From Paracamarosporium sp. OC-R06-R3 (taxonomy: Eukaryota; Ascomycota; Dothideomycetes; Pleosporales; Didymosphaeriaceae): DNA of 64,000 bases. Shown one piece after another: positions 2 to 14,335 of this stretch; position 1 is the stretch's first letter, and the number at the start of each line of letters is the position of its first letter. Both the position numbers and the translations under genes were made by a program. The DNA lies in contig JACVRA010000086.1 in assembly GCA_019828545.1 (NCBI GenBank), positions 62,001 through 126,000 on the forward strand, read 5' to 3'. The notes below the pieces were generated by a model. That model worked only from the letters and a program-made list of their open reading frames with translations, had not been told where the DNA came from and did not search any database.

Positions 2-721
2 CACCTACAGCCGCTTGACGTCGTCTGTTTTCAGCCATTAAAACATAATCATAAAATGGCTGTAGAGATAGCCACGCGAACTGGCTGTACAGAATTCAAC
101 AAAGTCGAATTTCTACATCAAATCCATAGTATAAGGATGGCGACTTTCAAGCGTAGGACGATAATCAGCGCCTGGGAGAAATTAGGTATATTTCCATTTA
201 ACCCAGAGATCGTCTATGCAAGGCTACCAACTGCTGTACGGACGCCGTCACCGCTATCCTTATCTGCTGCCAGCTCATCACCTATTGCTAATACGCCTAC
301 CTCATACCAACAGCAGCATAAGAAGATATCGCAGGCTCTACAAAATCGCAATATTTCAGGCAAGCGGCTAGAAAAGTTCCTACAAAGCTCACAATTGCTG
401 ATTGACAGTCTGGCGCTCGCTAAGCGTGACCTTCAAGAAATCACCGCAGCTGCGCAACAGCGTAAGAAAAGGCAGTTAAAAAATGCAAAGCAGGTACAGA
501 AAGGCGGCGTAATCACTGTTAAGGTAGCGCGACAAGCTATCGATCACCGTGTGGAGCAGGAGGCTTAAAAGGCTGCTTGTAAGGCAGCTAGGACGTACAA
601 AAACAGCTATTTTGAAGCCTTACAAAATCAACCCCAGCAGGTGCCATTGCTTAGAGAGATGACTGTTGATCCTACTATACTCGCTCTGTCAAACAACCCG
701 TATATTAGTCCATATAATTGA
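2..721 (+). pseudogene. C-terminal part of a pogo/Fot1-like DDE transposase, interrupted by a stop codon
   Basis: The open frame runs in from the left edge, so the gene starts outside the window. Its first residues, H-L-Q-P-L-D-V, match the block around the third catalytic Asp of Tc1/mariner-pogo (DDE_1, CENP-B-like) transposases. The W-E-K-L-G-I-F-P-F-N-P block that follows is typical of fungal Fot1-type C-termini. A TAA at 566-568 ends the frame, but the same frame continues with the expected Lys/Arg/Gln-rich tail for another 50 codons to a TGA at 719-721. I read this as a nonsense-mutated relic. A truncated but functional C-terminus is possible, since the stop lies after the catalytic region. 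The tail is basic and low in complexity, so its coding origin is inferred. Confidence 0.8.
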
Positions 722-918: not shown

Positions 919-3900
919 ATGGGGGAGATAAGCAAAGTTCGCAAAAGATCGCGCATTAAGCAGTGGTTTAGGGGTTCAGGCACCCTATCCAACGAGGCTA
1001 CCTCGGCCGCTCCGTCCACTACATCGTCTATTTCTCAAGAGCAAGTAAGTTCGATAAGCTCTCTTTATCGCATGACCCAAATTCACGCCCGCCACTGACC
1101 TAGCAAAGCATGAAGGAGGCCATGTACAACCATTAGCACCGGTAGCCTTGCCATCAGATGCAACACCACTAGCGACGACCTCGAAACAGGATGACATAAT
1201 TGAAGATGAAGCTCTCGCTGCGTCGAGAGATCGACTATGGAAAAAAGCGTTCGAGAGGCTGAAGGAAGAGCAACCCGAACTAGCTCAGGTTTACGAAGTG
1301 TTGATTAAAAACGATGTCAAAGTCGACCAGGAAACGGAAACAATCTCGCCCTCGGTAACGGCAGCTATGGTGCAGAAACAACAAGCGCGGATGGAATCGA
1401 AGCAATGGACCTACTCATGGTTTGGGAAGCCGAAGAAAGTTCGCGACACCGCTGAAAGTATCCTCACTACCATGAACAAGATGTCTGATCTCATTTCCGT
1501 TGGGATGTCTGTAGCTCCACCATATGTTTCATTACCTTGGAGCGTAGGTATGAGCTTGGTCGGGTTCGTTATGAGCAATGTCGAGGCGGTCAATAGCGCC
1601 ATTGATGGACTAAAAGACATCACCGGTTTGCTTGCAAGCTACAGTTATGCTGAAAGAGAATTCCTTCTCGATTCCTCGACTAAGGAGGGGTACGAAAACA
1701 TCGTATTACCGCTTTATACCTCCATTTTTGAGTATCAGGTTTCGGTCGCGCAATACTTCGCCAAAAGTACTCTCAAACAACTAGGCATGAACATGGTGGC
1801 CGCCAAGTCCTGGCCGAGTTCGCTTGAAACAGTCCATCAATTAAGTCAGGCGTGTTCGATGCCACTGAGCATGCTTGGTGTCCGATTGACCCAAAAACGC
1901 TTTGATGGCATTGATAGCTTGATGAAGCAGGGTATGGACTTACTGGAGCAGATCGGCCGCTCGGTTAGCACAGAACGCGAACAGCGAGAGAAGGTATTGG
2001 CGTGGCTGTCGCTAATACACCATTCTCAAGACCACCTGGATGCGCGTAATCTGATCGGAGATGCGTACCTAGCATCTGGCCAATGGCTCTTTGGCGACGA
2101 GACAGCATTCGTGCCGTGGAAGAAGTCGAAGAACGAAATTCTATTTTTACAAGGCATAGTTGGTTCGGGCAAGACGTCGCTGACGTCGATAGTCGTTCAA
2201 CACCTGCTGGAAAACGAACCAGTCGCGTTCTTCTACTGTTCGGCAAATTCGCAGCCCAGTAACCCCACACGGACAGCACATAACCTCACGAGGAACATCT
2301 TCCAGAGTGTATTAGCGCAATGCTCAGTTCAGTCCAACGGGACCATCTCAGACCGCATACGCACTTCCTTCGAGAATAGCAATGAGCAGATCGCGGGCGG
2401 GTGTGATATGACATTTGGCGCTGTTATGTCTACACTCAAAGATCTACTCCTGGACCGTGGCGATGAACAGATGACGTTTGTTTTTGATGCGCTGGACGAA
2501 TGTGAAGATCAAGGTGAATTTCTTACACATCTAGCGGATCTGATGGCTGCAGCACCAAACCTCCGTGTGTTCATCTCCAGCCGATTTGGTGTAGAAATTA
2601 ACAACTTTTTCCAATCTTATCGATCTTTGGAAATCAATGCGCAGAACTCAAATGACATACACGACTACGTCGAAGTCGAAATCACTAGACGCGGGAACAA
2701 CCTATCGCAGGAACAGACACGTCGATTGAAACAAGCTTTGGAGCGACAAGCTGAGGGATGGTATGTTGACTCAGAATTATTAGTTGCCGGACTAACGGAT
2801 AGCAGCTTTCGGTGGGTTGTCCTGGAGATTGATATCTTCCTGCCTCGGTCACAACGACAGGGGGGCCGCATGCTATCAAGAGACGTCGATCGTAGGCTGG
2901 ATCGGCTGGAAAATTCCGAAGCGCCTCCGGTCGAGCGCCTTCTTAATGCTTACGAAATACTATTCGGCTACGCATTGGGTGCTGAGGACGAGGAAGCCAG
3001 GCATTCAATCGTTAAAAGTGCCATTAAGTGGGTGTTGTGTTCGTTCTCACAGTTGAAATCGACTGTACTCTGCGAAGCGGTGCGTATGTCCCCGACGGGA
3101 ACGAGAGATGAAGATGTCACAGTCGACGACATCCTTGCTTATACAGCGAATTTTCTGGTCAAAGGATCCGACGATACCATAAGGCTTTCCCATCTGTCGG
3201 TACGCCAATTCTTCGAACAGCGAAAAGATGAAGAGTTCTCTACTTCAAAACAACACCTACACGTGGCTCTGACATGCATCAACTCGGATCCTTTTGCCAG
3301 AGTGACGGGATCAGAATCCCTATCAGCTAGTCCTGCATCCTTCGACAAATTCCTCAAAGGCTTTGACATTATCGGTTGGATTGAAGGTGACCCGGAAAGC
3401 CAATCCCTCTTGCCTACTCATGATCTTTACATATACATAGAGGCGCACTGGTACATTCATTGTCGGGCAGCTTATAAATCCCACGACCTTGTGAAGGCCC
3501 TACAAGCGTTTAACGTTGTCGGCCGCGCTTTGCCAGGACCGTCTCGACTACTTCTAGATATCGCTACAGAGCAAGACCTGACAGCGAAAGACGCGCTGGG
3601 CAACACCAGACTCCATCATGCTGTCCTTAATCGAGATTTCGTTTCTATGTCACGGTTACTACAGGTTGACAAACTGCTGAACCATGCCATCCTATCAAAC
3701 ACGGAGAATAGCGCGAAAAGTACGGCATTGCATTTGGCTGCTACAACTGCCTCTGTACCAGCCTTTCTCGACCTTATGTCCACTGGTGCAAACCTTACTC
3801 TACACAATTACGGAAAAATGACGCCAATACAGATTGCATATGTCTTACGCCGACATGGAATCATCACCAACACAATGCGACTGGGAGTATCTTTTTCAGA

Positions 3901-6478
3901 CAGTCACCGTAACAACCCTTTGCATTATGCAGCCTTCTTCACTGACTCATCGATCATGAAGGACCTACTGAGGAGTGGCTGGTCGCTACATACTGAGAAC
4001 GACTCGGGAAGAACTGCTGCTATGCTTGGTTCAGAAACAGGAGCGTCGATTATGTTCCCAACCAGCACTCTTGAGGAAAACCAAAGGTAAAGTGTTCTTA
4101 AGATGCTGGGATACTAATGGGCTTACGACTTACAAGTAACCAATCACGTACCCGCACCGACCCTGCTGTAGCCCCGCGAAGCGGAACCGTACCTACCGGG
4201 AAGTCGCCACCTCGCCTTCGAATTATTGTTGATGATACCTCGATAAGGCAGTGTGAATTCTGTGACTTGGGATGCTGGCTTAATGACAGACAAGAGTTCG
4301 TTTACCTCTCCTCTGCAGAGAAGGCTGGAAAAGTCTATCGTCTCTATCTTGCAGACGATCTCCCTTGCGTTTTCTGCTACTACTTGTGTGCCACAGCAAA
4401 GGACCTTTTCCGCGCGGTCGGCACTAGCAAGAACAGCGAAATGCGTGTTCGTGTGGGATTTGATGCCGATATGGAATATATAGGGAAGGGAAGGGACTCG
4501 CTATTAATCTCTTGTGCCGATCAACAATGTGAGATCGAGATATGCCTGGATATTGACGGTAAGCACACTTTTCTGAGTCAGAGGTGAAGCGTCCTGGAAA
4601 GCCGAAAAACAACTCTTCAAGCCCGTAGAGTGGGCATAACAGTAATGACCGAAAGCTTAACCTTGTGTTACCCTAAGCTGGCTTTGCGAAAGCAGGCCGA
4701 GTTTAGAGTTTAGTCGGGGATTTCATGACCTTATTGAAGATAGCCTGCTAATGTTTGTTTCTAGAATCTGTCCCGAAGTTGGCCAAGGACTTCTTTCGAA
4801 GCCGCACGCTCGCGCCAGAAATTACGGGGCCTCAAGTTGCAGAGAAATTGAGAGGTTGGATGGACCACTGCCGTCGAGACCATTCTGTCTGTGATGTGTC
4901 ACCAGATTGGTACCCCGACTACCTAATCGACGTCGGAACTTTGCAACAAGACGAGTCGCCCCGGCTTGTGCGACGACAGCACGACTGGTTCTCGAAAGAA
5001 TCTCACATCAAGTTTGCTTTCCTCTCCGCTCGAAGTGATGAAACGAGGTTCCATTTAAGCAAAGGCAATATTGAGGAAATGTATAATGGTGTTAAAATTG
5101 ATCGGTTCGCCAAAATACATCAAGACACTATGTCCATATGCCGTCAGCTAGGCTACAAATACCTCTTTGCTGACGAGCTTTGTATTGTACAGGATGACCC
5201 GGAGATGCAGCTGATAGCCAATACCTGGTACGGGCGAGCTTGTGAGAACGCTGATATCGTCTTTGCTTCTTCGACTTCCGCGGGAGACAACCTCTTTTCT
5301 CGAAAAACTGACGAACTCGAGGGCTCCATCAGGGTCAGATTAGATCAAAGTGGTGGAAAGCATGAAGATAACCTGCAGCCGTTCGTTTTGCAGCTACGCA
5401 AGGCACTCCCGAGCGCTTACACAGCCATCAGCGAAGATCTTGCCTCCCGAGGCTGGCGACTACAAGAGGCTATCCTGCCACATCGCCTTGTTTTCTTTCA
5501 TGATGATCAATTGATTTGGTCTTGCAGCCAAATATCTCAAACCGAAGGCAGCAGCATATCTCGTCTGCCGTGGTCTGAAACTATTGCTTCACTCAAGGAT
5601 CAATTAATAAAAGCTCTGGAAGGTTCTTCCCCGCAAGCAGCAGCATCATTAGTTTTCTCCTATTGGCGCTGGATCGTTGAAGTTGCCTCGCAGGGAGGGA
5701 TCACCAAAGAAGAGCACCGACTGCTGATATTGGATGGAATGGCCAGCTCATTGCAACCCTGGATAGAGAAGCTTTTTGTGAACGGGACTTATATCGCGGG
5801 TCTTTGGCCGCCTGATATTCGAAGTGGTCTGCTTTGGGTCTCTGCACAACCGTACAGGGAAAAAGAACGAGAATCCAGCAAGGATTACTCACCACCGTCC
5901 TTTAGCTTTGCATGGAACCAGGCGCCCATATCGTATTGCTTGTCCGCTGGGCTAAGGATCCACCCAGACATCCAAGGGAGCATGGAGCTTAAACAGGCAA
6001 TTGCGTTTCCTTCCACTGAGTTGACCATTTCAGCATTGGTGAAGGAGGTTGACAATGACCTTTCTGCGATACAACACTTTGAGTTTTTTTGGGATGCTGT
6101 TGAACAGCCTGAATCTATGGTCGACCCAACGTACGCCGAATGCCTAGTGTCTGGAGTGCATCGAACGACCTTCGCAATCATCGCTCCATGGACGTTTCGT
6201 CCGTCCATCGCACCCGCAACTGGAAAAGACAAAGTAAGTTATTCTGAGTTACCCAGGAAGAATCTTCATGTATCAGGAGCTCTCAAGTGTATGCTAATGT
6301 GAATACTCAGGCTGGGACAGGTAAATGCTTCTCAAAACCGGTAGACGCCAGGTGGGCTGGACTGGTACTTGGGAAGCGCCCACAAGGCGATGGATTCCAG
6401 CGGAAGGGGGTGTTCTTGGGACCGCTCTGCATCGAGAACATGTCTAGCTGGGAGAGAAAAGATCTAAAGCTGTATTGA
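919..6478 (+). CDS. NACHT-ankyrin-HET fusion NLR-like protein
   Basis: Proposed exons are 919-1044, 1109-2760, 2806-4086, 4137-4558, 4765-6233 and 6311-6478, giving 1705 aa. Order of domains: a short Ser/Thr-rich leader; a helical NACHT_N-type region (about 55-330); a NACHT NTPase with P-loop GIVGSGKTS (391-399) and Walker B FVFDALDEC (about 500); a winged-helix-like part; ankyrin-like repeats (about 850-1010); and a HET domain with its usual FADELCIVQDD (about 1294) and RGWRLQE (about 1389) blocks. Intron 2761-2805 is in frame (45 nt), and its removal restores the family motif G-C-F-R-W-V-V. Intron 4087-4136 has a perfect TACTAAT branch and joins the ankyrin end to the HET part in frame. Fungal STAND and HET proteins act in non-self recognition and regulated cell death. 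The alternative is two genes, with a separate HET gene starting at ATG 4117. Intron 4559-4764 (206 nt) is unusually long. Confidence 0.72.
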
Positions 6479-7698: not shown

Positions 7699-9958
7699 TT
7701 AACGCCTCTTAATCCGGGAAGCTTTCATTTTTCTACGTTCTTCATCATCCCATGCTTTGAAAATTGGTATAGGTAGACCTTGGCAGCCATATGGCTGGAC
7801 GCCCTCACCAGGCATGGCACGTCGAAAGTAACGCGACTGTATCCCATAATTGTGAAGACACTGTACAAGAGTCTTTTTCTTCGAATCATCAATATCGGTC
7901 ATGAGTCTCAGCACGTATTGATCCAGTGAGTATTCTATCCCGCTCTTGTCCTGATACAAGTATTTGTCGTTCCGCTGCGCATCACAGACTAAGTTCAGCG
8001 CCTTGAGCATGGTCTCAGTCACTTCCAAGCCATTTTCCAAGGCGATGTGCAGAACGGTTTTATTTCGGTATCGCCAATTCGATTTTGTCCGCGGCGCCAG
8101 AAGTTTGATGCACTCTTTTTGACGAGTTGCAAGGCTGGCTTCTTCTCTGGCAACTTTACACCAAGGAACGGTACATGGCGTGCATGCAATAGCAAGCGGT
8201 ATCATCTGGTCGAACTCTTGTGGCTCCTTGTTGGGATCATGAAAGTGTAGTAGCCAATTGACAAACTTTGGCAGTGCCATCAGTGCTGCCGTGTGAAGGC
8301 TTCCGTCATTTGGAATTTCTTCGCAGTCGAGAGCACGGTAAGCATCAAAGTTGCCTAGCATTACGCAGGCTAAACGAATCGGGAGATCGCTTGGCAATCC
8401 ATCGTTCTCATCTGTCACGGAATCGTTGTTTTCCACACTGAAGTGATAGAATGTAGATCTGGGTGTGCTACACTTGAGTACTTCGTCTCGATCGAGCTCC
8501 AAGAGGGCTTCCAATACTGGTGTGCGAGATTTATCGATGATGCATGCAAAACTTGCAGTGATGCCTGAATCCGGTGTGCAGTAAAAAGGAAGTACTGCTC
8601 TCCTTAGTTAGCTGTATTACATTTTCATAGAGAAGCAGAGCCGAAGGAAGAGAAAAATTTCGTGGTGTTCTTTTGCGTTCCATACAACAAGAGGTAATTT
8701 AATGGTGTCGACAGACCTTTATTACCTCCGAAATTCAGTAGGGTAAACACTATGTCGTTGGAGATTCTTGGCTCAGCAAGAAGTGCCCATATTAGGGGCG
8801 TGCAATGTTTGAGCTCGACATCGCCTTCAGTCACCAATTTCCATTGTGGGACATCAAGAGGAACCCCACGACCTAGTATGGTGGCCAGAAGCTTTTTTCC
8901 GGAGGGGAACTTATTCATGCATTGGTAAAGTAGCTGATGGTCGTCAATAGTGGCCATTGGATGTTGCTCTTCAAGACATATGTTGAACCATTGAAGCACT
9001 TCTTTTTCAGTATCGTACAAGTCTAGGAGAACTCGTAAAACTTTTGATAAATTCGAGCGTTTACTAAGAGCTCGAAAAGCAGCTTCATCCCCCGGGTTGG
9101 ATGCTAATGCGAAACAGCGAATGGCGTCTTGGTCGGGGTCGAGACTACTCATTTCTTCAGTTGTGTATGATGTTGTCTGGCTTGAACCAATGAGCATTCC
9201 ATGAACAATTTCAAGGATCGCAAGATAGTTGTCTTGCAGCATTTCTGATCCAAGGTGCTTACGAAGTTCTTTCTCGAGTCCTTTCCATTTCTGTCTTTCG
9301 ACGTAGGGAACCGAAGATGCGGTATAGAAAGTTTCGAGAGAGGACATATTTTCCTTTACTCGCTCCTCTGTTAAAACCATTTTCGCTTGCCATTGTTTCA
9401 CAATGCTATGGATGGAATTGGTGTCGAAGGAATGCTTGAAAGCGTGGATTTGACTGAGCTCCAGATGCAGCCTGAATAGTCTCGCTCGAGTGTCGATGAT
9501 ACTGTCGCACAGAGAGCTATGGGTGAACAGACGTGTATTGTCAAGGTCTTCATCAGCGGTGTAACGTTCTAGCAAAGTCTCCAAATTCTTAGCGTCGGAT
9601 AGTATGAACGAGTGTTTTTCAAGGACATGTCGTAGGTTCTCGTGTAGCTCCATCTGATTTGGTAGAAGGATCTCATCTAGTTTCTTTGCGTAGGCTAACA
9701 CAGCATCGGATGCGTCTTTGAGGTCTTCAATCCGCCCAGACAACATATCGGAGACATCCACAGACCCTCTACATCTTGCTACAAGGCGATCCGTGATTTC
9801 TTTGACTGCAGGTAGCGGATCTATAGATTGTATTAAAAATGAAATTGGTAGCCATTTCGCGAGAGATGCTAGCACTCACAAATGTTTATAGTCAAGTCAC
9901 CGCTCGTAGATATGTCGCCCAAGGCTAGGTTAGTCCCAAAGTAGGCCTTTTGCTCCAT
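7699..9958 (-). CDS. Ankyrin-type protein with an N-terminal amyloid-signalling-like motif
   Basis: Read on the minus strand, the exons are 9958-9880, 9820-8686 and 8599-7699, giving 704 aa. The first intron has GTGAGT..TATAG and joins in frame. The second (8600-8685) has a CTAAC branch, but its exact ends are less sure. Residues 13-25 read LGDISTSGDLTIN, a Gly/Asp/polar motif like the C-terminal motif of the divergent hydrolase at 10335-11602. A long helical region follows, then degenerate ankyrin-like repeats (about 330-600) and a basic tail. I see no P-loop, so this is not a standard NLR. The in-frame stop is a TAA overlapping an ATG (TAATG). An equally Lys/Arg-rich 80-codon frame continues from that ATG to 7457, which hints at a frameshifted C-terminus. 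Function is unknown; a receptor or regulator role in a cell-death module is inferred. Confidence 0.68.
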
Positions 9959-10334
9959 TTCTGAACCTCACGCGGTGTACTACCGACTTGACAAGAGACT
10001 TAATCTCTACCGCCGGGAATATTCACAATGTTAGCCTGTTAGTGTTTTGCTGTTGCCCAACTCTCGGGTGTAAAATAAAGAGGGGTTGTTTTGGCGCTGC
10101 GGCTGAGGTTGAGGCTCATATCGACCCCTGATACACACCCCGCTTCTGCCTGGATTCGTAAATCGCCTTTTCGTATCCCTCACAAAACTTCAATCACCTA
10201 CGGAAAACACCTCCGACACGTCAGATTACTGTTCTCTAGCACACGATATTGTTTCGCTTATCTGTTTGGACAAACTAGTGGCTACAGTAATAGCGACCAT
10301 AAGAAACCGTTCCAGGCTGTATTAGAGAACCAGT
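9959..10334. promoter_or_regulatory. Divergent promoter region shared by the ankyrin and hydrolase genes
   Basis: A 376-bp spacer lies between two divergent starts, which makes shared regulation possible. No specific operator was recognised. In the hydrolase frame a stop codon sits just before its ATG at 10335. Confidence 0.45.
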
Positions 10335-11602
10335 ATGCCACAATGGTGGCCCTTGACATGGAGGAAGAGATCAGAACTGCAACAAGCCTCAACTTCCGAT
10401 ACGAACAGAAACCTCTTCAGCACAGCGGGCAAATATGGCTTGAAGATGCTCACAGAAGGCGAGAACGCTATTGTAGAGTAATTATACAGGCCGTAATACC
10501 AGCCCAAGCGCCGATCTAATGAGATACCACAGTATCGTTTTCGTACACGGTCTTACAGGAAATCGTGAAACAACGTGGACGCACACCAACTCAATCAAGT
10601 CGATATTCTGGCCGAAAGATTTGCTTGCTGAGGATATTAAAAACGCTCGGATATTTACATTCGGATATGATGCTGACGTTGGACGTCTTTTCAGCATGGC
10701 TAGTTCGAATACTATTAGGGATCACAGAAGAACACTCGCACAGGACCTGGCGAGGCGAAGACATCTTACGGAAACAGTGAGTTACTATACCCAGGTTTTT
10801 CCCATTCATAGCATTTACTCATCAGATCAGAGCACACGTCCGATCATCTTCATTGCACACAGTCTTGGCGGACTAGTTGTGGAACAGGCGATTCTAATTG
10901 CGCGGGGATCACTACAACCTTATGTGAGGGCGCTACTTAATACTACGTTTGCAATTGCTTTTATGGGTACTCCACACCTTGGATCAAGCAAAGCTGAATG
11001 GGCTTCTCAACTTACTCGCTTCTCTCGGTTGCTGGGGACCAACCACAACATTGTCACTGTCCTAGAACCTACATCGGAAGTCTTAGCAATACTACAACAA
11101 GAGTTTCATACCCTTATGGAAGATAGGAAGAAGAATGAACGGGAAGAAGTAGAAATTTGCTGTTTTCACGAGGCCAAAGCCCATAGCCGCCTTGTTGGAA
11201 AGGTACGCGCAAATGAAGTTCTTTCCCCACGCCCCGCAATTCTTTCAACGAGTCAAGCAGACGGATACTGATCTGTGGAATAATAGATTGTAACGGATCA
11301 ATCCGCTATCCTTCCCGGGTATGATGCTCAAAGCATAAATGCCGATCATTCGGAAATGACCAAGTTCCCAAGTAAAACGGATCAAGGGTATATTGCAATA
11401 CAAGAAACCTTAGCGATATGGGTGGAGCAGATGAAAAGGAAAGGTTCTCGTCTCGAGACATTTAGTAAAGGCGGTATTTTTAACCAATCGAAATGGCTTC
11501 AATTGAATGCTGCTAATTGATACAACAGGTGGAGAGTCTTCTTTCAGCTTCACTGCTGGAAACATCCAGGTCGGAAGAGATTTTAGCATCAATCATAAAT
11601 AG
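10335..11602 (+). CDS. SesB-like alpha/beta serine hydrolase with C-terminal amyloid-like motif
   Basis: Five exons (10335-10477, 10533-10776, 10831-11202, 11287-11464, 11529-11602) give 336 aa, and all joins are in frame. Splicing the first intron (TCTAAT branch, CCACAG acceptor) makes the family signature V-D-I-V-F-V-H-G-L-T-G (oxyanion-hole region). The nucleophile elbow is A-H-S-L-G-G with Ser140, and His274 in the A-D-H-x-x-M block is the likely catalytic His. This is the lipase/esterase-like domain found alone or at the N-terminus of fungal STAND proteins (SesB type). The last exon, 74 nt after a GCTAAT..ACAG junction, adds AGNIQVGRDFSIN near the extreme C-terminus, the position where SesB-type effectors carry amyloid-signalling motifs. 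If that intron is retained, the protein ends at 11520 without the motif. Predicted role: a lipid- or ester-cleaving death effector triggered by the motif partner. Confidence 0.8.
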
Positions 11603-12751
11603 ATATCGCCCCCGAATGAATGTTAGAACATGTAAACATCATACCGTAGAGCCTTTCATATACTGGTTGACTAGGGGAAGCTGACAGTTAAGCAGAACGC
11701 GGGAAAAGAGCGTGGAGGTGTGCCTTCAGGACGATAGACAGGTTGCGAATGGTGCTTCGATCAACCGGTATATGCATGACTCTACGTTACTTCTATATGT
11801 TTGCAAATTGGGCGCATACTTTCGGTCTGGTACGATGGAGACTGACAGCGTTATAAGTGAGGCACCTACAATTTATTTTGTAGACGTGCTTCGAGTAGTC
11901 TTGTTGTCTATCTACTGCAGCAGAGCAGCTTTTAAAAGGAATATATATAGAACTTATCAGACTAAACTTGTACCGGCCCTTAGCTCGATAAACCTAACAC
12001 CTATCTGGTTGGAGATGAAGCAAGGAATATAATGTTGAATCTTACATTCTAGCAAGAACTCTTTCCTGACATGGCCGATTCATGTGGTTGAGAATGGAGG
12101 CTGTGTTGGCGCCGGGGTGATCTCGAAGGATACCGTATGACTAGGACATGACTTGTTGTTGAAGCTTGTATCGTAATAGCATTCAATACGTGCCTACGAA
12201 AACTTCTTGTTTACAATGGCTGGAATACCCAGATACTGTGGGCCTTGTTTGTCACTAACATCGGGGCTGAGCATATAATTTGAATAAGTCTACCTCTGCA
12301 TGCATTGTCACTAGGGACCAGTGCCTCTGCGAAAGCTCGTGGACCCTCCTTGCAGTTTAGGCAAAATGACAGAACTTGTAGTCGTGAAGACCCGAGGACA
12401 CCGTGTGGAGTTTGGTACACTATACAGATGACGTGTGATTGGCTCGAGCTAGAGCCGCAGTAGACCTCCTTGGCGAAGGGCCGCGGACGTTCACATTATC
12501 ATCGAGGCGCAGGCTCCCACTGTTGCCGTCGCAAATGATCATTCTTCTTCGCCTGTAGACACTTTCGCCATCGTTTTTGTTTCTGTACACGGTCGACGGA
12601 AATAGGCACGGTGTGCCGCTTGGACGCGTTTCACCATTACACGAGTTCGTCGCCACAAAGTCCGCCCGCGTGCTTGCTCAACCGTCGCCTCTGCGTTACC
12701 TCCTCGCACCTTGCTTTCGCAACGCGACGGCCCGTCGCATACCAACTGCAC
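11603..12751. other. Intergenic spacer
   Basis: Between the hydrolase and the FKBP-fusion gene. The 3-prime part holds the presumed promoter of the latter. A 106-codon frame at 11712-12032 has no recognisable family and is not called. Confidence 0.4.
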
Positions 12752-14335
12752 ATGGCGCGCTTCACCACCCTTTGCGCGCTGCCGCTCACTCTCCTCCTGT
12801 CCCTCGCCTCGGCCCAGGGTCTCGGTATCGAAGTCACGAAGCCTGTAGAATGCACACGGAAAACGCAAGAGGGTGATAAGATCACTGTCAACTACAAGGG
12901 CACTCTTGAGAGCGATGGATCTCAATTCGACTCGAGCTACGATCGCGGAGACCCGTTCGAATTCACACTGGGAGCAGGACAGGTCATTGCTGGGTGGGAT
13001 CAGGGTCTGGTAGGAATGTGCATAGGAGAAGGTAGGAAGTTAACTATTCCGCCAAACCTGGGGTACGGCAACTATGCTACGGGGCCGATTCCTGCTGGCT
13101 CGACCCTGATCTTCGAGACTGAGCTGCTGGGCATCTATGGCGTACAGCCAGACCCTGAGAAACCGCCTGCACAAGCCGCTCCTGACCGCCCCACGATCGC
13201 CCGTCCAAGCGGAGCGTCTGAGCCTACTGGAAAGCCCGCTGGGACTGACGCGTCGCCTATTTCTACGGCTATTGCTACACCAGCTTCGTCCGAACAGCTG
13301 CCCGCAACGTCGGACGCTCCCGCCGACCCTGCAACGACCGCATCTGCCAAGGCCAGTCCGATGGAGTCAGATGACAATGGCGAGTGCCACCTGCTGGGTC
13401 CCTATGCTCTGATAGTACAGGGTGCTTTGGGTTTGCTGGCTGTTTCGTCGCTGGCCTACAAGAGATGGCGCGAGACACCCCGTCGTCCGCTCAAGATATG
13501 GTTTTTCGACGTGTCGAAACAGGTCTTTGGGTCTGTTCTGCTGCACTTGGCCAACATCCTCATGTCTATGCTTTCGTCAGGAAAGTTTGACGTCGCTGCG
13601 AACACAAAGGCAACACCGCAACATGCAGGCCAGGACGACGATGGAAATCAGCCGAATCCTTGCTCTTTCTACCTGCTGAATCTTGCAATTGACGTAAGTT
13701 TTCAAAGCTTTAGATTTGTTCAATCCTAACGTTACTAGACCACCATTGGCATCCCGATCCTCGTGCTACTGCTCAAGGTCCTACACAGGGGATTCCTTCT
13801 CACACCCATGGCCAACCCACCTGAGTCGATCCGCTCCGGAAACTATGGCCATCCACCTCGCGCTACTTGGTGGCTAAAGCAATCTGTCATCTACTTCATC
13901 GGTCTCCTTGGCATGAAGCTGTGTGTCTTCTTCATCTTCCAACTTCTGCCCTGGATCGCATGGGTGGGCGACTGGGCATTGCGCTGGACTGAGGGCAGCG
14001 AAGCCCTCCAAATTCTATTCGTCATGTTCATATTCCCGCTCATCATGAACGCCTTGCAATACTGGATCATCGACGGGTTCATCAAGGACCCTGCTGGAAG
14101 CGAGAGTCACTACGTGGTTGCAGCCGGCGAGGAAAGCGACGACGAGAGCGACGATGAATGGCTTGAGCGGCAAAGGCAGAGGAGGGAGGATGACGACAGT
14201 GACATGGAAACTGCAGAGACTGGACCGCTGAAAGAAGCCAACCCGACTGCAGTTCCTGCGCGCAGCAGAGAGTACGATCCTCACATCGAGAGAGCCGGCA
14301 GCAGTCGGGAAGGGCACAAGGAGCGGAGAGAATGA
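12752..14335 (+). CDS. Secreted FKBP-type prolyl isomerase fused to a STIMATE/YPL162C-like membrane protein
   Basis: Exons 12752-13693 and 13739-14335 (GTAAGT..ACTAG) give 512 aa. Residues 1-21 form a signal peptide (Leu-rich core ending A-S-A). Residues about 25-130 are an FKBP domain ([42 protein letters not shown]), so a prolyl cis-trans isomerase is expected in the ER lumen or secretory path. An Ala/Pro/Ser/Thr-rich linker leads to C-H-L-L-G-P and a multi-helix region with [13 protein letters not shown]-x-x-Y and [10 protein letters not shown] blocks. These blocks are typical of the STIMATE/TMEM110 and yeast vacuolar membrane protein YPL162C family. The tail is acidic and probably cytosolic. 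The two parts are in one uninterrupted exon, so the fusion is directly visible. An unseen intron with an alternative end for FKBP cannot be excluded. Confidence 0.85.

What the first reader, a model, noticed from the sequence alone, without database searches (positions are those of the whole stretch)
9880..11602. Possible amyloid-signalling module: matching motifs at the C-terminus of a SesB-like hydrolase and the N-terminus of its divergent ankyrin neighbour
The last 74-nt exon of the hydrolase encodes AGNIQVGRDFSIN. The first exon of the divergent gene encodes LGDISTSGDLTIN. Aligned, G, I, D, I and N coincide, and N/D, F/L and S/T are conservative. In known fungal systems (Nectria sesA-nwd2-sesB; Podospora HET-S/NWD2) an effector with a C-terminal motif sits beside a receptor with an N-terminal motif, and the amyloid fold passes the signal. 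Here the receptor-like protein has ankyrin-like repeats and no P-loop, so it would be a new receptor class. The motif does not match the HET-s, sigma or PP patterns I remember. Motif identity and role are inference; the paired positions are seen.
Basis: partly seen in the sequence, partly recalled or inferred. Interest (0 to 1): 0.9.

Follow-up and report, generated by a model that had tools for sequence, protein, structure and literature searches.

The report
Paired end motifs, hydrolase and ankyrin
Two fungal genes that face away from each other carry related short end motifs of the kind that elsewhere passes an amyloid 'go' signal from a sensor to a killer enzyme, but the sensor-side protein here lacks the usual nucleotide switch, so it may be a different sort of sensor.

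Summary
In detail: the hydrolase's last 74-nt exon encodes AGNIQVGRDFSIN and the first exon of the divergent gene encodes LGDISTSGDLTIN, behind plausible splice sites.

The hydrolase tail is a conserved motif. It recurs at the end of 26 of the 120 homologues listed (8 of the best 10), has no Pfam model and fits none of the published fungal signatures I could read.

The ankyrin-side match is weaker: 5 of 13 identical, shuffle p 0.0075. A profile of other species' tails does not single it out in full (34 of 3,288 ATG starts score as high), but its core does (2 of 3,288, the other being the hydrolase tail).

Context lifts it. Seven other SesB-like hydrolases of this genome have motif-like tails; six face a divergent gene whose N-terminus resembles the tail. 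Three of those partners are NLR-like, three are not, and two of the latter are paralogues.

I read the locus as an amyloid-signalling-type effector/partner module with a non-NLR ankyrin partner. Amyloid formation, sensing and cell death are untested.

The parts
10335..11602 (+). SesB-like alpha/beta hydrolase gene, exons 10335-10477, 10533-11202, 11287-11464, 11529-11602 (354 aa); AHSLGG (Ser158) and ADHSEMTKF (His292) present
   Evidence: the catalytic role of these residues is recalled
11529..11602 (+). last exon; codes the C-terminal motif SGESSFSFTAGNIQVGRDFSINHK
   Evidence: family
11558..11593 (+). motif core GNIQVGRDFSIN
7699..9958 (-). divergent helical/ankyrin gene, exons 9958-9880, 9820-8717 (or -8726), 8594-7699 (692 or 689 aa); no P-loop
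9880..9958 (-). first exon; codes MEQKAYFGTNLALGDISTSGDLTINI
9884..9919 (-). motif core GDISTSGDLTIN
9959..10334 (.). 376 bp between the two start codons (divergent promoter region, inferred)
   Evidence: sequence
1076..4090 (+). main open frame of a NACHT_N - NACHT - ankyrin NLR of the same cluster (start by eye about 919); its N-terminus scores only 17 against the tail
4752..6299 (+). open frame of a HET-domain gene of the same cluster (gene ends not determined)
   Evidence: PF06985 E 3e-8

Best explanation
The locus is a two-gene module of the fungal amyloid-signalling type. The hydrolase is the executioner; its short C-terminal motif is a conditional aggregation switch. The divergent protein carries a related motif at its N-terminus, followed by a predicted helical stretch and degenerate ankyrin repeats. 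When the ankyrin/helical part binds its cue and clusters, its N-terminal motifs would form a cross-beta seed. The seed recruits and templates the hydrolase tails, and the clustered serine hydrolase becomes active, probably on lipids, giving regulated cell death. Shown: the two motifs, their terminal positions, predicted own exons, the divergent layout, the tail in other fungi, and the repeated layout in this genome. Inferred: amyloid fold, templating, sensing, lipase activity, cell death.
For: Tail: 26 of 120 listed homologues (of 1,089 found), 8 of the best 10, end in SGGGxxFxGNxxAGRDFxYN-like motifs. A profile from those 26, window left out, puts our tail first of 214,813 peptides (26.3 bits, next 13.2). 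Ankyrin N-terminus: the expected register is best by more than 13 bits; core profile 2 of 3,288 ATG starts; of the seven hydrolase tails compared it fits its own neighbour's best. Layout: seven other separate SesB-like loci have motif-like tails; six (L035, L036, L038, L039, L040, L043) have a divergent partner with a resembling N-terminus. Diagonal of the 7x7 matrix: reached by 2 of 5,040 permutations, the true one included; without the two strong pairs, 2 of 120, the true one included. No standard P-loop in the frames of three partners; L036 and L038 partners are paralogues (helical part 29%, C-terminal domain 40%; genome search E 1e-18), so a non-NLR partner was kept through a duplication. 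In L035, L036 and L038 the N-terminal motif lies in another frame from the body, which implies its own exon, as here.
Against: Direct similarity of the two window motifs is low next to the clear pairs of the same genome (26 against 70 and 100). The full profile gives the ankyrin N-terminus -0.7 bits (219 of 194,456 peptides score as high). The window tail scores higher against the L036 partner's N-terminus (34) than against its own neighbour's (26). By rank among ATG starts the window pair is the weakest of the seven. The ankyrin protein has no homologue at E<=0.001 among 7,995 scored candidates. A probe with five motif copies found no 475-1,510-aa protein at E<=10 (519 candidates), so no receptor-sized protein with this motif was found elsewhere. 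No oligomerisation domain is recognisable; the exon-2 model is helical but poor (mean pLDDT 48).
Confidence: 0.58

Rival explanations
1. The hydrolase tail is a true amyloid-signalling-type motif, but its partner is another protein (an unlinked NLR or a lost one). The ankyrin N-terminus resembles it by chance.
For: The pair score is within the top 0.6% of ATG starts, not unique. Published work suspects pairing between non-adjacent genes (PMC9815663 section 24). The NACHT model has 50 matches in the genome.
Against: Position, own exon, divergent layout and core-profile rank coincide. Short-peptide searches of the genome with both window motifs returned only the window copies, though each first look passed on a single candidate, so they are insensitive.
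Confidence: 0.27
2. The pair is real, but the ankyrin protein is a regulator or scaffold (it holds the hydrolase, or links it to the NLR at about 919-4090) rather than a sensor that seeds it.
For: It has no NTPase switch. An NLR with its own NACHT_N domain and a HET gene lie within 10 kb. Three other non-NLR partners show no Pfam family above cut-off in the frames scanned.
Against: The NLR's N-terminus does not match the tail (score 17). The N-terminal motif position is that of receptors in known pairs (PMC5485727).
Confidence: 0.1
3. Neither end works as a signalling motif: gene-model artefact or neutral low-complexity ends.
For: No transcripts; exon 1 of the ankyrin gene rests on splice consensus alone.
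Against: 26 of 120 homologues have the tail; P0001 keeps it at 57% identity, against 52% for the whole protein.
Confidence: 0.05

Closest known systems
HET-S/NWD2 and other fungal amyloid-signalling pairs (HRAM, PP, sigma, PUASM, GDQN)
   Same: C-terminal motif on an effector, related N-terminal motif on the neighbour's product, adjacent genes, motifs of about 20 residues with conserved glycines (PMC5485727 parts 1-2 of 4; PMC3321046 passages; PMC9815663 sections 19 and 24 and passages; PMC12261475 abstract and section 3.3)
   Different: The partner has no NACHT/NB-ARC; the motif signature GNxxAGRDFxYN is none of those printed; no fibril or seeding data
Sigma system sesA/sesB/het-eN (Nectria)
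   Same: SesB-like hydrolase as an effector next to an ankyrin-bearing gene (PMC3321046 passages)
   Different: het-eN has a NACHT; sigma repeats GxGxQFN/GGTQNINT absent here; I saw no sesA beside the pair
Same-genome pair L040 (SesB-like / NB-ARC-TPR)
   Same: Divergent layout, tail/N-terminus pair
   Different: Clear similarity (score 70) and an NLR-type partner (P-loop, TPR; NB-ARC hit just below its cut-off)
Same-genome pairs L036 and L038 (SesB-like / non-NLR helical-disordered protein)
   Same: Divergent layout, non-NLR partner, motif on its own predicted first exon, weak pair similarity (33 and 30)
   Different: Another motif group (GHxV...NR); a shared C-terminal domain instead of ankyrin repeats

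Membership tests
SesB-like hydrolase | DUF676/PGAP1-type alpha/beta hydrolase domain | tested here: met
   DUF676 8.2e-9, PGAP1 2.3e-5; among 120 listed homologues some are named SesB-related
SesB-like hydrolase | catalytic Ser elbow and His | tested here: met
   AHSLGG and ADHSEMTKF; [AG]HSLGG in 89 of 120 homologues, the His pattern in 103 of 120. The catalytic role is recalled, no assay
Fungal amyloid-signalling pair | short motif at the effector C-terminus | tested here: met
Fungal amyloid-signalling pair | related motif at the N-terminus of the neighbour | tested here: inconclusive
   shuffle p 0.0075; core profile 2 of 3,288, full profile 34 of 3,288
Fungal amyloid-signalling pair | partner is an NLR/STAND NTPase | tested here: not met
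   no P-loop, no NTPase family in the pieces scanned
Fungal amyloid-signalling pair | cross-beta fibrils and seeding | not testable with these tools
   bench work
HRAM/HET-s motif | 21-aa repeats, hydrophobic at 3, 6, 8, 14 and G at 17 (PMC5485727) | tested here: not met
   no register of the tail fits, by eye; a single copy; no Pfam hit
Sigma motif | GxGxQFNxx / GGTQNINT; Pfam NACHT_sigma | tested here: not met
   no hit for the window motifs; control L042 tail hits NACHT_sigma at 1.1e-8
PP motif | FxGx(x)NxGLQLxGxNxGxL | tested here: not met
   no G-hydrophobic-Q-hydrophobic-G core, by eye
PUASM / GDQN | FxGxGxQxxGxGxF / NxxxGxQYxxxGxGDQNxVSxxxxQxN | tested here: not met
   by eye against both window motifs

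The most novel reading that the evidence does not exclude
Fungi run amyloid-type effector switches from partners that are not NLRs at all: an N-terminal motif exon plus a helical stretch plus a free-standing sensor part (ankyrin here; helical/disordered proteins with their own shared domain at L036 and L038; another protein at L035), each head-to-head with a SesB-like hydrolase. NLR-anchored surveys would not see them. The GRDF tail would be a further motif family.
Probability: 0.42. Interest if true: 0.82.

Novelty: new variant of a known kind. Interest (0 to 1): 0.64.

Why it matters
In the parts of the fungal amyloid-signalling papers seen here the trigger partner of the effector is an NLR or other STAND protein, and the motif survey read starts from NLRs or from effectors near NLRs (PMC9815663 sections 19 and 24). 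If non-NLR partners use the same trick, the trigger does not need a nucleotide switch, the known motif list is incomplete, and this genome offers four loci (this window, L035, L036, L038) on which that can be tested with peptides.

Tried and rejected
Direct pairing as sole evidence: rejected as too weak. Regex made from both motifs: only the two copies found in 16 regions of about 10 kb, but the pattern is post hoc. Pfam on both motifs and on homologous tails: nothing. Full-length ankyrin protein against 5.8 billion proteins: nothing at E<=0.001 among 7,995 candidates scored. Receptor-sized proteins with the motif: nothing at E<=10. Motif peptides against the own genome: only self; a homologue's motif found nothing, and the tool warns that this shows nothing. 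Homology of the ankyrin gene's helical stretch to those of L035, L036, L038: not supported (best E 0.36). The one relative of the ankyrin part at E<=0.001, a very long ankyrin protein on C282 (E 2.7e-13), shows no motif that I saw in the stretch fetched. A single-sequence fold of ankyrin exon 2 is helical but of low confidence, so no fold search was run. The window NLR as partner: N-terminus score 17. Literature: seven searches; none of the listed titles and abstract openings, and none of the passages opened, reports non-NLR partners in fungal amyloid signalling or this motif. Supplements and figure logos could not be read, so an unnamed motif in them cannot be excluded. Passages only were seen of PMC12881547, PMC7889193 and PMC12258605.

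Full report
What is there. The window is positions 62001-126000 of contig C327 of a 43.09-Mb genome in 337 contigs. The closest hydrolase homologues come from Corynespora, Cucurbitaria and Alternaria, so I take it as a dothideomycete fungus (inference). The hydrolase gene (10335-11602, +) and the ankyrin gene (9958-7699, -) have 376 bp between their start codons and point away from each other. The last hydrolase exon (74 nt) and the first ankyrin exon (79 nt) carry little besides the two motifs.

The hydrolase tail. Of 1,089 homologues found, the 120 listed were read. 26 of those 120, and 8 of the best 10, end in a motif with consensus xSGGGPxFxGNxxAGRDFxxN. The 26 were picked with a pattern that fixes the glycine before N and limits the GRD places, so the conservation of those columns is partly by selection; the SGGG, A and F columns were free. 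The nearest, P0001, ends RSSNFTFSSGNISVGRNFSIHHGAQ. A position profile built from the 26 without the window scores the window tail 26.3 bits, first of 214,813 six-frame peptides from the window and 16 other stretches of the genome; the next scores 13.2. Members scored with themselves left out get 8 to 57 bits, P0001 being the lowest. Pfam has nothing for the window tail or for the homologous tails scanned, nor a tail family in P0008 and P0035 scanned whole, while a sigma-type tail of the same genome (L042) hits NACHT_sigma at 1.1e-8. So the tail is a conserved motif without a name that I could find; I call it GRDF here.

The ankyrin N-terminus. It aligns to the tail without gaps, 5 of the 12 core positions identical. 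The same profile gives it -0.7 bits in that register and -14 or less in the others. Against 194,456 stop-free peptides 219 score as high; with core columns 7-21 only, 13 do. Among 3,288 ATG-started peptides of at least 25 codons, 34 reach its full-profile score and 2 its core score, the other being the hydrolase tail itself. By pairing alone 14 of 3,288 reach its score, itself and the tail included. So the sequence case is suggestive, roughly p 0.001 to 0.01, not compelling.

The context that raises it. The genome has matches at 15 further SesB-like loci, fetched as L035-L049. By reading frames (by eye) six run on into an NTPase (L037, L041, L044-L047; the NACHT model independently hits next to L041, L045 and L046), seven have glycine-rich motif-like tails (L035, L036, L038, L039, L040, L042, L043) and two were not resolved (L048, L049). 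Of the seven, six have a divergent gene whose N-terminus resembles the tail. L042 has sigma-type tails on the hydrolase and on two small neighbours (SesA-like by eye), with an NPHP3_N/ankyrin gene in which I saw no N-terminal motif; it is not in the matrix below. The partners of L039, L040 and L043 are NLR-like: L039 NPHP3_N and ankyrin repeats above cut-off, NACHT below; L040 a P-loop and TPRs, NB-ARC 21.9 bits against a cut-off of 23.5; L043 TPRs, NB-ARC 19.1 against 23.5. In the partners of L035, L036 and L038 the standard P-loop pattern is absent from all frames of 70 aa or more (a loose GKGKS occurs in one frame of L038 other than its main one) and no family exceeds its cut-off in the frames scanned. 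L036 and L038 partners are paralogues, each with its own motif.

All against all. Seven tails against seven N-termini: the diagonal sum is reached by 2 of 5,040 permutations including the true one; leaving out the strong L040 and L043, by 2 of 120 including the true one. The ankyrin N-terminus prefers its own neighbour's tail over the six others; the window tail, however, scores higher against the L036 N-terminus (34) than against the ankyrin one (26). Within the L036/L038/L039 group the ends also match across loci. Rank of each partner among the ATG starts: L035 and L040 first, L043 second, L036 7th, L039 14th, L038 16th, window 21st. The window pair is thus the weakest by rank, close to L038 and L039.

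Neighbourhood. A NACHT_N-NACHT-ankyrin NLR (main frame 1076-4090) and a HET-domain gene (frame from 4752) lie beyond the 3' end of the ankyrin gene. The NLR already carries an effector-type N-terminal domain, and its N-terminus scores only 17 against the tail. The finding as given does not mention it.

Mechanism. From the published pairs (PMC5485727 parts 1-2 of 4; PMC3321046 passages; PMC9815663 sections 19 and 24 and passages; PMC12261475 abstract and section 3.3) I infer: cue, clustering of the ankyrin protein, cross-beta seed of N-terminal motifs, templating of hydrolase tails, hydrolase activity, cell death. Only the anatomy is shown. How a protein without NTPase would be switched is open; ligand-driven clustering through the helical stretch is my guess.

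Compared with the known. It would work like the HET-S/NWD2 and sigma pairs but fails one of their usual features, the NLR partner, and none of the printed signatures of HRAM, sigma, PP, PUASM or GDQN fits. I therefore file it as a variant, not as a member of a named motif family. In seven literature searches nothing listed or opened reports non-NLR partners; supplements were not available.

Noticed in passing
window 1076-4090 +: NLR with NACHT_N, NACHT/NPHP3_N and ankyrin repeats, about 3.6 kb from the 3' end of the ankyrin gene.
   Followed up: partly
window 4752-6299 +: HET-domain protein (PF06985 E 3e-8) between the NLR and the ankyrin gene; the cluster looks like an allorecognition/immunity cluster.
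   Followed up: partly
L036:825-3725 and L038:6191-9900: Paralogous non-NLR partners: N-terminal motif exon, helical part, disordered-looking stretch, and a shared C-terminal domain (40% over 124 aa) with no Pfam family; only these two matched in the genome search.
   Followed up: yes
L040:4300-7946: Divergent SesB-like/NB-ARC-TPR pair with another motif type, TxVxGGSVFQGNxxG, at both ends.
   Followed up: partly
homologue tails P0009, P0011, P0045, P0056 and others: A second frequent tail type, VFNGPISGRNVISGTQxTGGTxNFNFS-like, also without a Pfam hit (one instance scanned).
   Followed up: no
L055:892-6084 -: Very long ankyrin protein, the only relative of the ankyrin gene's C-terminal part found at E<=0.001 in this genome (E 2.7e-13).
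   Followed up: partly
window 12750-14335 +: By eye, an FKBP-type prolyl isomerase with a membrane part; not tested.
   Followed up: no
window 2-568 +: By eye, a transposase-like fragment at the window's edge; not tested.
   Followed up: no
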